Positions 2,833 through 9,175 of a stretch of 64,000 bases of DNA are shown here, piece after piece; the first letter of the stretch is position 1; each line of letters begins with the position of its first letter. The notes under the pieces are model-generated. The model was not told the DNA's origin. It worked only from the letters and a program-made list of their open reading frames with translations, and made no database searches. Source of the stretch: Lyngbya aestuarii BL J (GTDB lineage Bacteria; Cyanobacteriota; Cyanobacteriia; Cyanobacteriales; Microcoleaceae); NCBI RefSeq assembly GCF_000478195.2, contig NZ_AUZM01000005.1:62001-126000 (forward strand), given 5' to 3'. A program made the position numbers and the translations under genes.

Positions 2833-5211
2833 TTAATTTTCAATCAATACTTTTGCTATTTTTTGTAGTAAAGATGATTGACTATTATCGCTAATCTTAA
2901 GAACATTTTGAGTTAGTGTGCTAAAGTGCAAAGCAGCTATAGGATGCTCAATTAATTCTGATGTAGAGATAAATTCTCCCGAATACTTTTTCCCAATTAA
3001 ATGATAAACTCTAAATCCTTTCTTTATTGTTTCATTAATATTGTTTTTAGGGGGAACAAAGTACTGAATAAATGATTCGTTATGTAGATCAAAACATATC
3101 CTATTCTTTATTTTGTTTATAGGTTTTGTTTTCAAGTTATAATAGCTAATTAATGGTAATAAGTCAGCACTATCTTTTTTATTAATTTTTTTATTAATTT
3201 TCAAAGTTTCATTTTCAATCTCTTTTATAACGTTATGTCGTCCTATTAATGTAGGTGTAAAGTTATCGCTAGTGTAACAATTAATATATAGTTTTTCAGA
3301 TTCGTCTACAAAATATTGTTGGTCATTTATCAATTTTTCGGAATTATTTCTTTGTTTTCTTAAAAAGTTGAATTTTCTTTTAATTTCATTAATATCCCGC
3401 ATTGTATCTTTGAGATAGATGCGATCATTCTTGTAAAGAAACTGTACTGCTACTGCTTGAGCTTCTTTATTTCTTGGACTTCTTACATAGATCGCCCAAA
3501 ATTCTTGTTCTGAAAATGATTGAGGAATTATGGTTAAGCCAAGATCGGGGTTTATTAAACTTTGTTTTATCCAGTTTTTGATTCCTATTTCAATTATAAT
3601 TTTCTTAAATTCAGGAGCAATTTTGAGTTTATGTACATTACAAAAATTTTCCCATGCTTCACTATCTTCCTGCTGGCTTAGATAGCAAGCTAAATAATCT
3701 TCTACCTCTAAATATTGCCCATTAGAGAAAGTTAGGCAATCTTGTTGAAGCGTATCTATGTCTATGCTTGAAGGATAGTTGACAGCAGCAAAATTTGTTT
3801 CTTGTTCATTTTGAGAATTTTGCCTTGCTTGTTGTGCTATTTTAAACGCAGGTATGTTTATACCTTGAATACTATAAAACTCACCCATATCTAAATAGTT
3901 GTATTTACTTTTTAACTGAGAATATAAATCGATTTTTGATCGCCCATCTAGTTTAGTTGAAGGACACCATAAGTCATCATCTCTTTGATAAGCCATCGAG
4001 CCGACTTCTTCTTCTAAAAGTTTATTGAAAATCAAGTAGTTTTTTTGCTTATTTAGTTCAATACTAGACCAAGGAATAACTTCGGTAATTCTCCAGCAAA
4101 TATCGTCTTCATCCTCATTTTCTATTTTTTCATAGGTACTAACAGTCTTGCCTGAATTATAAAAGGTAAGAATAGGAATTCCTTTATTTCTTAGAAATTT
4201 TTGTAAAAATTGTTGCTCGCTTTCGGTTAAGTCAATTCCTGTATTATTAATAATTTCTAAGGATTCTACGGCTTCTATGTTTTTGATAAAGGGATTTTCT
4301 AAATAATGGTCAGCCTGAAAGTCAAGGATTTCAAACTTAATATCGCATTCTTTTAAAAAATCCTCAAGTTTGTTCATTAGGTTTTGATAATGATAAAGCT
4401 GAGTCTTTTTAAATCTGCCGTATTTTTCGTCCTCTTTATCTTTACGGAAATCCATAAAGTATATATAATTTGACCGACGAGCATCAAGATTACGGTCGAA
4501 ATAATATTTTTTATTTTTATAGACTAACAACTCTCCTAAATCTTCACCATCTAAAGTTTTATAATCTTTTTTGTCTTTAGATAAAAATAATCGCCTTTTT
4601 CTAGTCAGCTTTAGAGTTAATACATCGTGGTAATTGTATTTAACTAACAAACTTTGTCCCCAAACATCAAGACCGCTTTTCGATTTAGTGAAATGTTTAG
4701 GATGAAGAAAAAAAAGTTCTTCAAAGCCTTTGATTGTCTCGCTAGGCAATACCGAAGAAAGAAGATACAATTTAAAGACTAGATTGAAAATTCTTTCTCT
4801 GTTGTTTTCAAACAATCGTTTCCAACTAGAATTTTGTTTGTTCGGGGACAAGAAAAATATATAGTTCTTACCGTTGCTATGAGAAAGAAAGTATTGTATG
4901 TCTGAATATTCTACTTCTTCTCCATGTTGAGAAAGTCTTTTCTTTACTTCATTTTTGATATATTTGTGTCTTTCCCGATAAAAGTCAGCTCGTGAGTTAT
5001 CATTAGAAGATTCTGCTTCGGAAGTGCTATTGTCAGAATTACGATCTTCTTCATCTGTTGTAGGTGGATACTGAAGCTCAAAATACTGTATTCCTTTGCC
5101 AGTTTTAAAAAGATACTGGTATAGTTGTTCGGCAATATCTTGATTCGGTAATATTTTAAGCTGGTTAGTGCGCGATATGTCAGATTTTGCTTCAATTAAC
5201 AGATCTTTCAT
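2833..5211 (-). CDS. 792-aa partner of the helicase-nuclease, unknown fold (possible pPIWI-RE-like)
   Basis: A large soluble protein with no transmembrane segment and no catalytic motif I can name. Residues ~50-75 are a Ser/Asp/Glu/Asn-rich linker after 'PPTTDEEDR'. Then come a basic strand 'LTLKLTRKRRLFL', a patch 'FMDFRKDK', 'KTQLYHYQNLMNKLEDFL', and a C-terminal block ending near 'HPIAALHFSTLTQNV'. It begins one base after the helicase stop, so the two are translationally linked and co-transcribed. Size and pairing with a DinG-like helicase plus a restriction-type nuclease recall pPIWI-RE modules, whose ~800-1000-aa protein is a divergent Argonaute relative. That is a hypothesis; I could not place the family's Arg and Glu. 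The gene is clearly AT-richer than its housekeeping neighbours. Confidence 0.75.
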   Translation of the reverse strand: MKDLLIEAKSDISRTNQLKILPNQDIAEQLYQYLFKTGKGIQYFELQYPPTTDEEDRNSDNSTSEAESSNDNSRADFYRERHKYIKNEVKKRLSQHGEEVEYSDIQYFLSHSNGKNYIFFLSPNKQNSSWKRLFENNRERIFNLVFKLYLLSSVLPSETIKGFEELFFLHPKHFTKSKSGLDVWGQSLLVKYNYHDVLTLKLTRKRRLFLSKDKKDYKTLDGEDLGELLVYKNKKYYFDRNLDARRSNYIYFMDFRKDKEDEKYGRFKKTQLYHYQNLMNKLEDFLKECDIKFEILDFQADHYLENPFIKNIEAVESLEIINNTGIDLTESEQQFLQKFLRNKGIPILTFYNSGKTVSTYEKIENEDEDDICWRITEVIPWSSIELNKQKNYLIFNKLLEEEVGSMAYQRDDDLWCPSTKLDGRSKIDLYSQLKSKYNYLDMGEFYSIQGINIPAFKIAQQARQNSQNEQETNFAAVNYPSSIDIDTLQQDCLTFSNGQYLEVEDYLACYLSQQEDSEAWENFCNVHKLKIAPEFKKIIIEIGIKNWIKQSLINPDLGLTIIPQSFSEQEFWAIYVRSPRNKEAQAVAVQFLYKNDRIYLKDTMRDINEIKRKFNFLRKQRNNSEKLINDQQYFVDESEKLYINCYTSDNFTPTLIGRHNVIKEIENETLKINKKINKKDSADLLPLISYYNLKTKPINKIKNRICFDLHNESFIQYFVPPKNNINETIKKGFRVYHLIGKKYSGEFISTSELIEHPIAALHFSTLTQNVLKISDNSQSSLLQKIAKVLIEN

Positions 5212-5212
5212 T

Positions 5213-8200
5213 TCACTTCTGGAATAAAAAATTTCTCAAAATAGCAGATTCAACGGGACAATTCTGGAAGTTGAAGTAAATCAAGTTACCTGAACACAGT
5301 GTAGCATCATGCTGGTGAATTTTTTCTTGGCTAGCGTGTAGATTCAATAATAGTCCTTTGACTGCTTTGAATTCTGGATCTGGATAATATCCAGCTATAG
5401 TTTTTAGCTTCTCCTTGGATTTGTTAACAGCAAGTTTCGATAAGCGATTTCCTGATGCTCTACTCCAAGCTTTTACATCAATACAAAATAAAACTTTGTT
5501 GCAAATATAGTAAAGATCGAAGCGTTCGTAAAGTTGAGGATATTTTTTAAAATCTAATAATTGCTCGAAACCGTAGTATGCTTTTATTGTTTTCCAGTCT
5601 TTTCCCTGAAAAATTATGTCTTTGATCCAACGTTCTACAAAGCTTTCGGTTAGCGATGGATACAAAATATCGTAAAAGAAGCAATAACGAGGTATGTAAC
5701 TATCAAAAATATCTGGTTGCGGAATCAATTTATTGTATAGCTGGTAGATTGAGTTAGTAGAGACATTGATGCTAATTTTATTCCCTTCTAAATCGTAACC
5801 TTGAGAGTTCGCTTTTAGATGTTCGGGATACAGTCGCTGTTGATATGGATATATTCTTTCGCCATGAATGCTATCGCTAATAATTTGAAACTGTTTCCCT
5901 TCTTCCTCTACTGAAGCTAAATATGGAGTAAATTCAGAATCCTCAGATTTAATATAAAACAAGGAGTCAATAAACTCATTGGGTAACAGCTCTAGTTTCT
6001 GCAAATTTTCTAAATATTCAGATGGATTTTTGAATACAATAGGATCACGTAATCTATCCCATACTTTGTTGATATCAAAATTACTCTTACACTCATGAAA
6101 TAGTTCTATCTCCTCTAACATTGTTTTTCTAAATTTTTGAAAAGCTAAATCGGCATCAATTTCATCATATATGTGGTCTTCATAGTTTTTTATAGCTCGC
6201 TTTTGCGCTTCTACTAAAACTCTCGAGTAAACCTCATAGTTATTAACAGACAGTTTGTCAATTTCGTTTGGCTCTTGTTTCTGTAGATAATTGTAAAAAA
6301 TAACTAAATTTTTTCTAGTTTCTTCGTTGATAAATATTTTAATAACTTGTGGGTCAAAATATCGCCTTTCCGACCTTCCAATCGCTTGCACAATTGCCTT
6401 ACCCAATAAAATCTGATGTTGTTGAGCGCGAAATTGAGCAGCCTCTGGTTTACTTAGGTATTCGTTAAAGTCTTTAATCTCTATATTCGATTCGCTAAGA
6501 TTAACAATATTTTTCATTAAGGCAAAATGATAAAGAGTAGTATTTTTATCGGCTTCATCATCTTTCGACTTTCTAGAAGGTGATTTTACTGCTGTATAGT
6601 AACTATCCATCAATAAAACTAGAGAATCGAAGTCCTTTTCTCTTCCCTTCTGGGTTTTTACTATGGGATTCAATCCTTTTGATGCTGACTGATAAGCGGA
6701 AATAAAAAATATCTTTTCTTCTTCTTTTTCGACAAGTTCATCTAAGTAAGTTCTGTTACTATCTTTATCATAGTAATCCTTGTTGAAAGAAGCTCTGTAT
6801 AAAATCAGCTTGACGCGAATTTCACTTGAGTATTTCTTGTGTTGTACTTTTACATAATATATGCTGGGATGTTCTGAAGATTTTTCAAATATAAAATTAC
6901 TGCTATTGACCGCCAGACAATATTCTATTAATTTTTTGATCCAGCGTAGACTTTGAGTAAAAGCAATTGTTTCTTGAACATCATCATCTTCAAAGAGATA
7001 AAATAAAAAGCGAGTAAATTTGCATAGCTCCTGTTTTTTATAATCCCCCAAATAACTAACGTTTTGTTCTTCCTGTGAACTGCGGATAAAATCTTTCAAG
7101 ATCTGGCTCTCAAATCTTTCTGCTACCTCCTTTGTTTGATCGTTAGGAAATGACTCCCAATCTTTACCGAAAAATCCCACGGTAGTATGTCTATGCTGTT
7201 GTCGATAATTTCTGATTTCTTCGCAAAGATCAACTTCTAATTCGCTCATAGCTTGAAAAGAGCTTTGACCAGACTCGCGACGCAACTTATCTTCCATATA
7301 AGACATATCGTAACTGGTAGTCAGATCACCATAAATTCCCCCAGTGGCAGAAATTGAAAAAATTACGTTGGCATTGTTCACCAGCATTGATTTCATTTTA
7401 TATTCGGGAGAAGTAAGAATAGCAGTGCTGCCGATAGAAACTTCTAGTAGTGCCGAATCTATGAGATTATTTTTAGAGTTCTGATAGCGAGATATTTCTT
7501 TAATATTTATAATCGGTTTGTTGCTTTCATAGACATACTGACGATCTAAATATTGATGTTTTTGCCTATCGCTCTGTGTCGCATTTTCTTCATCGGCTTT
7601 TTGAACCTTACTTATTTGCTTTGACCAAATATCTAAAGCATGAGATTGAGAATCATCAGCATCTAAAACGTTAGCCAAAATCTTTTTAGTCTTTCCAATT
7701 TGCGATCGCATAGCTAAAATGACATAAATCAATTCAGCTACAGAGGTTTTGTCCGATACTGTTTTTTCCATAATACGAACATGACCTCCAGAAGCTTTGC
7801 TAAGATACAATTTTTGTAGAGCTTTGATGTTGTAAATGTACAAGTTGTTATAGCAAAAGATATTCATTAGATCGTTTCCGATCTGATTGTATAGTCGTTG
7901 AGGGATTAACAGACTTCTGGTATTTTCAAATTTCGCTAACACCCTAGATATCATTTCAAAATTGAAATCAATAGGAGTCTCTTGATCATAATTATTAAAA
8001 ATTGCTACAATATCGGCTAAAGATTCTTCTATTCCTTTGCTAATAGATATTAAACTTTGCAAAAACTTTATCGAACTTCCTTCTTCAAAAGTAATTTTTT
8101 GATATGTACTAAGGTATTGTTGTAATTCTGGATCGAGTATTTTTCCTTTTTCTAAATGCTCCTGAAATTCATCAAAAGCTCCAGGATTGCGATCAAGAAA

Positions 8201-9175
8201 ATTTAATAATTCTCTGTTTGAATTATTTCTATTAAAAAAAATTAATCCAAACTCCCGATAAATTGATGACAGTGCATTGTTAATTGCCATATCTTCGGGA
8301 GAAATAATATCTATCTTTTTCTTGAGCATAATTTGATAACCATCTTCTTGCTCGTCAAAAGCTAAGATAAATTTCCTGGAGCTATTTGTATTTTGAACTA
8401 CATACTTATCTAAATGTTCGTTCCTCTTAACCCATTTTTTGCCGTTGTGGATAAAATAGGGTATTTTAGTTTCAAATTTATCGTAAGTAAGCAATAAGAT
8501 ACCAGATTTATCTCGAAGAAGATATAAAGGAAAAAATATTTTAATTAGCTCCGAACATTCATTCGATAAGTTATCTTTTTCTAATTCGCATTTTATGTAA
8601 AATTCTAAAAAGCTCTCCAACGCATTGTTTAATTCTCTTTTAGCTCTAGTAATTTCCGATTTGTTATATTCCTCATCCCCCAAACCTATCGTCTTAATGT
8701 AATCAAGACGGTTAATGACACCTTTCGCTGTTTTTAGTTTTTGCTTATGTTCTTCAACTTTATCTTTAAAAGAGGCTAAAGAGGCTTGTTTCCACAGTTT
8801 TGTGTTTTTCAGGATTAAAGGTATCCATTTTTTATAGAGTAGAATGTATTTGTCCGTCGTCTTCATTTCTAAGGAATTTATAGTATAGACGGGGATATTT
8901 TGATATTTATCTTTAACTTGACTGGGAACAGATAAATGTTCTCTTAACGGAGCAACATAAATACCAATAGTTTGAATATATGGATACTTTTCAATCGTTT
9001 GGCACATCGCTTCAAACAACTGGTGAGTCTTACCCGAACCCGTACCATAATTAATGAGCTTGAATTGTGAATGATTTTCTTGAAAACTCTTTTCTATGAT
9101 GTTTAAATAAGAATTGAGAATCTGATCGCGAATTAATTTTAACTGTCCAACAGCAATATTTCTTTCTTCTTGCAT
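5213..9175 (-). CDS. DinG-like superfamily 2 helicase fused to a PD-(D/E)XK nuclease
   Basis: A 1320-aa protein. Walker A is GTGSGKT (residues 44-50), motif Ia is near 'IYVAPLREHL', the DExx box is 'LAFDEQED' (~273), motif III is 'SISATGG' (~610), motif V 'SASKGLNP' (~832) and motif VI 'QAIGRSERR' (~930). The ~220-aa insertion before the DExx box and ~330-aa insertion after it match the XPD/DinG layout (Fe-S and Arch positions), but the four cluster cysteines are not evident. The last ~110 residues carry FD (D1220) and DVK (D1233, K1235), the spacing of a PD-(D/E)XK nuclease. The expected activity is ATP-driven unwinding coupled to DNA cleavage. It is first in a tight two-gene operon; the next gene starts one base after its stop. 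Confidence 0.85.
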   Translation of the reverse strand: MQEERNIAVGQLKLIRDQILNSYLNIIEKSFQENHSQFKLINYGTGSGKTHQLFEAMCQTIEKYPYIQTIGIYVAPLREHLSVPSQVKDKYQNIPVYTINSLEMKTTDKYILLYKKWIPLILKNTKLWKQASLASFKDKVEEHKQKLKTAKGVINRLDYIKTIGLGDEEYNKSEITRAKRELNNALESFLEFYIKCELEKDNLSNECSELIKIFFPLYLLRDKSGILLLTYDKFETKIPYFIHNGKKWVKRNEHLDKYVVQNTNSSRKFILAFDEQEDGYQIMLKKKIDIISPEDMAINNALSSIYREFGLIFFNRNNSNRELLNFLDRNPGAFDEFQEHLEKGKILDPELQQYLSTYQKITFEEGSSIKFLQSLISISKGIEESLADIVAIFNNYDQETPIDFNFEMISRVLAKFENTRSLLIPQRLYNQIGNDLMNIFCYNNLYIYNIKALQKLYLSKASGGHVRIMEKTVSDKTSVAELIYVILAMRSQIGKTKKILANVLDADDSQSHALDIWSKQISKVQKADEENATQSDRQKHQYLDRQYVYESNKPIINIKEISRYQNSKNNLIDSALLEVSIGSTAILTSPEYKMKSMLVNNANVIFSISATGGIYGDLTTSYDMSYMEDKLRRESGQSSFQAMSELEVDLCEEIRNYRQQHRHTTVGFFGKDWESFPNDQTKEVAERFESQILKDFIRSSQEEQNVSYLGDYKKQELCKFTRFLFYLFEDDDVQETIAFTQSLRWIKKLIEYCLAVNSSNFIFEKSSEHPSIYYVKVQHKKYSSEIRVKLILYRASFNKDYYDKDSNRTYLDELVEKEEEKIFFISAYQSASKGLNPIVKTQKGREKDFDSLVLLMDSYYTAVKSPSRKSKDDEADKNTTLYHFALMKNIVNLSESNIEIKDFNEYLSKPEAAQFRAQQHQILLGKAIVQAIGRSERRYFDPQVIKIFINEETRKNLVIFYNYLQKQEPNEIDKLSVNNYEVYSRVLVEAQKRAIKNYEDHIYDEIDADLAFQKFRKTMLEEIELFHECKSNFDINKVWDRLRDPIVFKNPSEYLENLQKLELLPNEFIDSLFYIKSEDSEFTPYLASVEEEGKQFQIISDSIHGERIYPYQQRLYPEHLKANSQGYDLEGNKISINVSTNSIYQLYNKLIPQPDIFDSYIPRYCFFYDILYPSLTESFVERWIKDIIFQGKDWKTIKAYYGFEQLLDFKKYPQLYERFDLYYICNKVLFCIDVKAWSRASGNRLSKLAVNKSKEKLKTIAGYYPDPEFKAVKGLLLNLHASQEKIHQHDATLCSGNLIYFNFQNCPVESAILRNFLFQK

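What the first reader, a model, noticed from the sequence alone, without database searches (positions are those of the whole stretch)
2833..9175. Two-gene operon: DinG-like helicase-nuclease fusion plus a 792-aa unclassified partner
Seen: helicase motifs I, Ia, II (DEQE), III (SAT), V and VI in one 1320-aa protein. Insertions lie where XPD/DinG helicases carry their Fe-S and Arch domains, and a terminal PD-(D/E)XK site (D1220, D1233, K1235) follows. The stop is one base before a 792-aa gene with no motif I know. The operon is AT-rich and has transposon debris and an XRE gene upstream. Known: DinG-type helicase, nuclease and a large PIWI-related protein make up pPIWI-RE modules. Inference: this may be a compact variant with the nuclease fused to the helicase, or a new helicase-nuclease defence system.
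Basis: partly seen in the sequence, partly recalled or inferred. Interest (0 to 1): 0.85.

Follow-up and report, generated by a model that had tools for sequence, protein, structure and literature searches.

The report
Cyanobacterial ApsAB-type anti-plasmid operon
The two genes are a cyanobacterial version of ApsAB, a bacterial defence system already described in E. coli, in which an Argonaute-like protein is thought to find invading plasmids and a helicase-nuclease to destroy them.

Summary
On the minus strand lie a 1320-aa SF2 helicase with a C-terminal PD-(D/E)XK site and, after one base, a 792-aa gene. The pair is patchy and sometimes broken: 15 of 388 genomes sampled from the order have a strong match, 11 of them with both genes whole.

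It is not a pPIWI-RE module. It is an ApsAB system, published in 2024 as an E. coli anti-plasmid system (PMC11096173). My E. coli relatives carry every residue number I checked from that paper. Profiles built only from cyanobacterial proteins pick ApsA and ApsB out of 1130 ORFs and nothing credible from 5 pPIWI-RE loci or 12 Argonaute loci. All 13 full-length partners examined, the window's included, keep the guide-pocket motif Y-x3-K...QG...K and end in Glu-Asn. Foldseek with a weak model ranked Argonautes and DdmE first.

Likely mechanism, as in DdmDE: the Argonaute-like protein binds a guide, finds plasmid DNA and recruits the helicase-nuclease. Shown in E. coli by others: both genes needed, plasmids lost, eight phages not stopped. 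In cyanobacteria this is inference. The paper already names cyanobacteria as carriers: a new member of a known kind.

The parts
5213..9175 (-). apsA-like gene, 1320 aa: SF2 helicase with C-terminal PD-(D/E)XK nuclease
2833..5211 (-). apsB-like gene, 792 aa: Argonaute-like partner
9026..9043 (-). Walker A / motif I TGSGKT, residues 45-50 (K49 = ApsA K221)
8522..8866 (-). helical insert between motifs Ia and II, residues 104-218; among the better-predicted parts of a poor model, weakly matches the collinear region of DdmD
   Evidence: 8u3k_A Z 6.1, 9ixm_A Z 6.0; generic helical bundles score up to 7.6
8345..8356 (-). motif II DEQE, residues 274-277 (= ApsA DELH 532-535)
7343..7351 (-). motif III SAT, residues 609-611 (= ApsA 823-825)
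6365..6388 (-). motif VI QAIGRSER, residues 930-937 (= ApsA QAVGRVER 1140-1147)
5465..5521 (-). nuclease motif FD(x12)DVKAW, residues 1219-1237 (D1220, D1233, K1235 = ApsA D1420, D1433, K1435)
3862..3924 (-). MID-type guide 5'-end pocket Y430-x3-K434-x14-Q449-G450 (= ApsB Y409, K413, Q431)
   Evidence: PMC11096173 section 11
3577..3579 (-). K545, fourth pocket residue (= ApsB K489)
2836..2841 (-). C-terminal Glu791-Asn792 (Asn = ApsB N743), the last two residues of 13 of 13 full-length partners examined

Best explanation
This is an ApsAB anti-plasmid operon of a cyanobacterium. ApsB (792 aa) is an Argonaute-like protein whose MID-type pocket holds the 5' end of a nucleic-acid guide; paired to plasmid DNA it recruits ApsA (1320 aa), which uses its ATP-driven SF2 helicase to run along the displaced strand and its PD-(D/E)XK domain to cut it, so the plasmid is lost. 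Shown in E. coli by others: both genes needed, helicase residues and ApsB K413 essential, nuclease lysine partly needed, plasmids eliminated, eight phages unaffected. Shown here: homology of both proteins, conservation of all those residues, operon structure, patchy and apparently horizontally moved distribution. Inferred: anti-plasmid function in cyanobacteria, and the guide and recruitment steps, which are borrowed from DdmDE.
For: Cyanobacteria-only profiles against 1130 ORFs of 22 loci (Z set to 1e6): the ApsB profile hits E. coli ApsB (3e-11, 9.3e-11), Acidovorax (8.1e-4), Comamonas (2.2e-3) and, weakly, Oceanisphaera (0.044), next best E = 180; the ApsA profile hits only Acidovorax (5e-35) and the two E. 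coli copies (3e-25, 1e-24). The E. coli copies carry the checked residue numbers of ApsA and ApsB. Motifs in 15 of 15 whole helicases and 13 of 13 full-length partners examined. Foldseek of the window partner: 38 of the first 40 rows are titled Argonaute, PIWI or DdmE/DdmDE, the latter at ranks 2, 5, 6 and 11; the other two are 4kpy, recalled as Thermus Argonaute. An equally weak model of the helicase gave an unrelated mixture. Same gene order in each locus where both genes could be read. Patchy: 4 of 98 relatives, own genome included, 15 of 388 in the order, 146 of 5426 E. coli genomes. The helicase tree conflicts with host families.
Against: Identity to E. coli ApsA/ApsB is only 22%/25%. Both structure models are poor (mean pLDDT 48), no Foldseek match reached 1e-3, and hhalign did not link the partner to Argonautes. 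No plasmid test in cyanobacteria is known to me. Pfam, PADLOC and NCBIfam gave no match above cut-off for either protein.
Confidence: 0.92

Rival explanations
1. A compact pPIWI-RE module in which the restriction nuclease is fused to a DinG helicase.
For: Same kinds of parts, and the Argonaute-like gene follows the helicase gene as in pPIWI-RE loci.
Against: No Pfam pPIWI-RE hit; hhalign 0.45% and 3.3%; cyanobacterial profiles ignore five pPIWI-RE loci; no Fe-S cysteine pattern; direct homology to ApsAB instead. The hhalign negative is weak, because pPIWI-RE against Argonautes also failed in this set.
Confidence: 0.02
2. A true DdmDE system (DdmD plus DdmE) rather than ApsAB.
For: Same architecture; DdmE among the top fold matches; DdmD among the weak helicase matches at a collinear position.
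Against: The partner has the QG-containing MID motif that the ApsAB authors report for ApsB and say DdmE lacks; sequence profiles reach ApsA/ApsB, whereas DdmD/DdmE chains in the PDB were not reached by sequence. No DdmDE sequence was available to me for a direct test.
Confidence: 0.04
3. ApsAB by descent, but in cyanobacteria it mainly guards against other invaders (phages, integrative elements) or has a housekeeping DNA-repair role.
For: Nothing tested in cyanobacteria; the E. coli phage test covered eight phages only.
Against: Patchy and sometimes broken, so hardly housekeeping; three ApsAB systems in E. coli, down to 28/25% identity, all acted on plasmids.
Confidence: 0.2

Closest known systems
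ApsAB (Escherichia coli ST38; Zongo et al. 2024, PMC11096173)
   Same: Two-gene operon, helicase-nuclease first, Argonaute-like second; the checked catalytic and pocket residues; C-terminal Asn; patchy, sometimes truncated copies; cyanobacteria named as carriers.
   Different: Only 22%/25% identical. ApsA is 1320 aa instead of 1569 and lacks most of the N-terminal stretch ahead of Walker A (K49 against K221). ApsB is 792 instead of 743 aa, with a longer stretch between the QG and the last Lys (96 against 58 residues). Genes one base apart instead of overlapping by 4.
DdmDE (Vibrio cholerae, Lactobacillus casei)
   Same: Same parts: DdmD SF2 helicase with PD-(D/E)XK nuclease, DdmE inactive Argonaute; anti-plasmid; DdmE in the top fold matches.
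   Different: No sequence similarity detected here to DdmD/DdmE chains in the PDB; ApsB keeps a MID motif that its authors say DdmE lacks.
pPIWI-RE triads
   Same: Helicase followed by a PIWI-type gene, plus a restriction-fold nuclease.
   Different: Three genes, separate nuclease, DinG helicase with a cysteine-rich region, no sequence relation detected.
Long prokaryotic Argonautes
   Same: MID-type Y-K-Q-K pocket and C-terminal residue; weak overall fold match.
   Different: No Piwi (PF02171) match; the ApsAB authors find no typical PAZ or PIWI (RNase H) domain in ApsB.

Membership tests
ApsAB | ApsA: SF2 helicase motifs I, II, III, VI | tested here: met
   15 of 15 whole helicases incl. window; positions match the paper in E. 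coli
ApsAB | ApsA: C-terminal PD-(D/E)XK, D...DxK | tested here: met
   D1220, D1233, K1235; 15 of 15. By motif only; the nuclease fold was not modelled
ApsAB | ApsB motif Y-x3-K-xn-QG-xn-K | tested here: met
   13 of 13 full-length partners incl. window
ApsAB | Sequence homology of both proteins to E. coli ApsA and ApsB | tested here: met
ApsAB | apsB directly downstream of apsA in one operon | tested here: met
   co-transcription itself not tested
ApsAB | Anti-plasmid activity needing both genes | not testable with these tools
   needs the bench
DdmDE | DdmD-type helicase-nuclease plus Argonaute-fold partner | tested here: inconclusive
   architecture fits; weak fold matches only
DdmDE | Sequence homology to DdmD and DdmE | tested here: inconclusive
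   PDB chains not reached by sequence; no DdmDE family alignment at hand
pPIWI-RE module | pPIWI-RE protein with PF13032-type RNase H region | tested here: not met
   no Pfam match up to E 1; own genome no PF13032 hit; hhalign 0.45%
pPIWI-RE module | DinG-type helicase with Fe-S cysteine region | tested here: not met
   no four-Cys pattern between motifs I and II in 15 of 15 proteins; hhalign 3.3%, motif VI only
pPIWI-RE module | Separate restriction-endonuclease gene first in a triad | tested here: not met
   two-gene operon, nuclease fused to the helicase
Long pAgo | Recognisable PIWI domain (PF02171) | tested here: not met
   no match up to E 1; own genome no PF02171 hit

The most novel reading that the evidence does not exclude
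ApsB is a full but eroded Argonaute of the same lineage as DdmE, with a degenerate PIWI domain that earlier work did not recognise, so ApsAB and DdmDE are two branches of one ancient guide-directed plasmid-clearing machine shared between cyanobacteria and proteobacteria.
Probability: 0.4. Interest if true: 0.45.

Novelty: new member of a known kind. Interest (0 to 1): 0.3.

Why it matters
It adds concrete cyanobacterial copies, intact and broken, to a guide-directed anti-plasmid system. It could bear on why some cyanobacteria resist plasmid-based genetics (speculation), and it offers photosynthetic versions of a plasmid-curing system. It also cautions that helicase plus nuclease plus Argonaute-like gene is not by itself pPIWI-RE.

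Tried and rejected
Family libraries: Pfam, PADLOC and NCBIfam gave nothing above cut-off for the two proteins; PHROGs gave only weak unnamed hits (best 0.0035). PDB sequence searches with single proteins and profiles found nothing credible. Five viral-contig scans and one phage search with the Acidovorax helicase found no relative. Profile-profile tests of the partner against Argonautes and pPIWI-RE, whole and cut, were all insignificant; pPIWI-RE against Argonautes failed as well, so this test has little power here. One row (G622) was cut at the wrong place; one search repeats the test with the right cut and nine of the fifteen rows.

Structure models: partner pLDDT 48, pTM 0.35; helicase residues 1-1150 pLDDT 48, pTM 0.32. 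The first gave a coherent Argonaute/DdmE list, but no E below 1e-3, and best VIA Z 5.6 over 267 residues at rmsd 11.4. The second gave unrelated proteins by Foldseek; by VIA, Z up to 7.6 to generic helical bundles, DdmD at 6.1 and 6.0 on residues 104-218. XPD/DinG did not appear in the rows shown, which excludes nothing. The nuclease domain was not modelled.

Of the 35 genomes scored, I set 20 aside: they match only query residues 9-161 around Walker A at E 9e-8 to 6e-4, 17 of them in open frames of 964-1267 aa. Their identity was not checked; I suspect Mfd-like helicases (recall). Of the four genomes I call broken, G627's second gene stops early about 100 bases from a contig end.

XRE as a system component: rejected. 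Its protein matched no other operon locus held, only its own locus and one paralogue (flanks of some loci are short, and that script's database also wrongly held some protein alignment rows, which do not affect the DNA hits). In one search the E. coli row is poorly aligned near motif II, so I replaced that cysteine count, which needs no alignment.
Full report
What is there. The minus strand carries ORF 9175..5213 (1320 aa) and, after one base, ORF 5211..2833 (792 aa). The window lies on contig C5 of a 6.86-Mb genome; the named close copies are cyanobacterial. The operon is 29-35% GC. The neighbours are ordinary genes: a glycosyltransferase on one side and an XRE regulator on the other (Pfam), then a cyclic-nucleotide-type and a thioredoxin-TPR-type protein (named by eye). 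The last two also stand together in 5 of the 11 relatives' loci looked at, in genomes without the operon.

Relatives. One genome scan and whole-genome searches gave close copies (58-88% identical to each other) with the same two-gene order. In the order, 15 of 388 sampled genomes had a strong match and 11 of these have both genes whole; the other four hold broken copies: Prochloron G454, G624, G655 and G627, the last near a contig end. Twenty further genomes scored only around Walker A and were set aside. Among 98 nearest relatives 4 had it, the own genome included; a phylum sample of 386 searched with the partner gave the own genome and one fragment. The helicase tree conflicts with host groups: the window's copy groups with copies from other families (G641, ESFC-1, Pleurocapsa), not with the three copies of its own family, and two lineages of the operon occur inside one genus, g223 (families). 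I read this as horizontal transfer. dN/dS of 0.13-0.31 in four pairs per gene set quoted in the observation check fits purifying selection on intact copies.

Distant relatives and identity. A protein search of plasmids found an Acidovorax plasmid (4e-20) and an E. coli record (4e-8). Both have the same gene pair; in the E. coli record the helicase gene is interrupted, and intact copies exist in others. DNA of the E. coli partner gene occurs in 146 of 5426 complete genomes, all places on chromosomes; in one of two regions opened an integrase and tRNA-Phe lie nearby. In both regions opened the two products are annotated as hypothetical.

A structure model of the window partner was poor, but 38 of Foldseek's first 40 rows were titled Argonaute, PIWI or DdmE/DdmDE, with DdmE-type chains at ranks 2, 5, 6 and 11. 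That led to DdmDE and then to ApsAB. I read sections 9, 11, 12 and 25, the abstract and passages of PMC11096173. The residue numbers checked (ApsA GFGKS 218-222, DELH 532-535, SAT 823-825, QAVGRVER 1140-1147, D1420, D1433-V-K1435; ApsB Y409, K413, Q431, K489, N743) all fall on the right letters in my E. coli proteins. So those are ApsAB, and the window operon is their homologue.

Membership. Profiles from 11 cyanobacterial ApsB and 13 ApsA proteins, with no proteobacterial row, were run against 1130 ORFs from 22 loci that included five pPIWI-RE loci and twelve Argonaute loci. They found only ApsAB proteins, including partial ApsB genes on Comamonas and Oceanisphaera plasmids, the latter weakly (0.044); the next ORF scored E = 180. 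Single-sequence BLAST at a database size of 2e8 gave 4.9e-26 (Acidovorax ApsA), 2.5e-12 (E. coli ApsA), 2.9e-5 and 3e-4 (Acidovorax and E. coli ApsB). The five sequence and gene-order features listed for ApsAB are met; activity cannot be tested here.

How it works. In E. coli ApsAB destabilises IncL, p15A, ColE1 and pMB1 plasmids, not pSC101 or IncFII/IncFIB plasmids; after induction a ColE1 plasmid was more than 95% gone by six hours; no protection was seen against eight phages; both genes are needed. Helicase mutants K221A and E533A and pocket mutant ApsB K413A are dead, nuclease mutant K1435A is partly active. In the better-known DdmDE, a catalytically dead Argonaute with a DNA guide recruits the helicase-nuclease, which loads on the displaced strand and runs 5' to 3' (review PMC12409362, passages only). 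The window proteins keep the matching residues K49, E275, K1235 and K434. The mechanism step by step is therefore inference from two studied relatives.

The operon lacks the separate nuclease gene, the Fe-S cysteine pattern and any measurable similarity to pPIWI-RE (defining features from passages of PMC3702460). The weakness of that negative is stated: pPIWI-RE against Argonautes also failed in my profile tests.

Novelty. The ApsAB authors already report the family in cyanobacteria. A search for the word ApsAB in the held library gave 6 papers, of which I opened only the original. I could not see its supplementary tables, so I cannot say whether this very locus is in them. What is added here: the cyanobacterial anatomy (ApsA without most of the E. 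coli N-terminal stretch, ApsB with a longer link between QG and the last Lys), counts of carriers in samples, evidence of transfer and decay, and weak fold evidence tying ApsB to DdmE, whose predicted structures the authors found different.

Noticed in passing
L008:4609-8198 (Acidovorax plasmid pACDW039_1): Two genes with a weak Glyoxalase_8 match precede apsAB (one just over, one just under Pfam's cut-off); the second overlaps apsA by 4 bases, and a TIR-domain gene follows apsB. They may be accessory parts in that lineage.
   Followed up: partly
L014:10295-10800: E. coli ApsA has an extra N-terminal stretch of roughly 170 residues before the helicase that is absent in the cyanobacterial and Acidovorax proteins; by eye it opens like a Myb/SANT helix (recalled), but Pfam names nothing.
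   Followed up: partly
L066:32-4797 (G655): A broken apsAB: helicase N-terminus and apsB C-terminus remain, with a gene with a sub-threshold HSDR_N match between them.
   Followed up: no
L009 (CP061233.1): A 1.0-Mb E. coli 'plasmid' in PLSDB carries a stretch that in the complete E. coli genomes searched is chromosomal; it may be a mislabelled chromosome piece.
   Followed up: no
window:9593-9832: XRE-type regulator beside the operon has a 64% identical paralogue elsewhere in the genome (L099) and matched none of the other operon loci held.
   Followed up: yes
L068-L072: Five of the six cyanobacterial PF13032 (pPIWI-RE) loci found in 194 genomes; by size and position they follow the published order, but I identified only the pPIWI gene by family.
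   Followed up: partly
window:59001-60000: One kilobase at 61% GC in a window that is otherwise mostly 37-49%.
   Followed up: no
window:2833-5211: Residues 326-444 of the partner, just ahead of and into the MID motif, weakly match the unnamed phage family phrog_25419 (0.0035).
   Followed up: no
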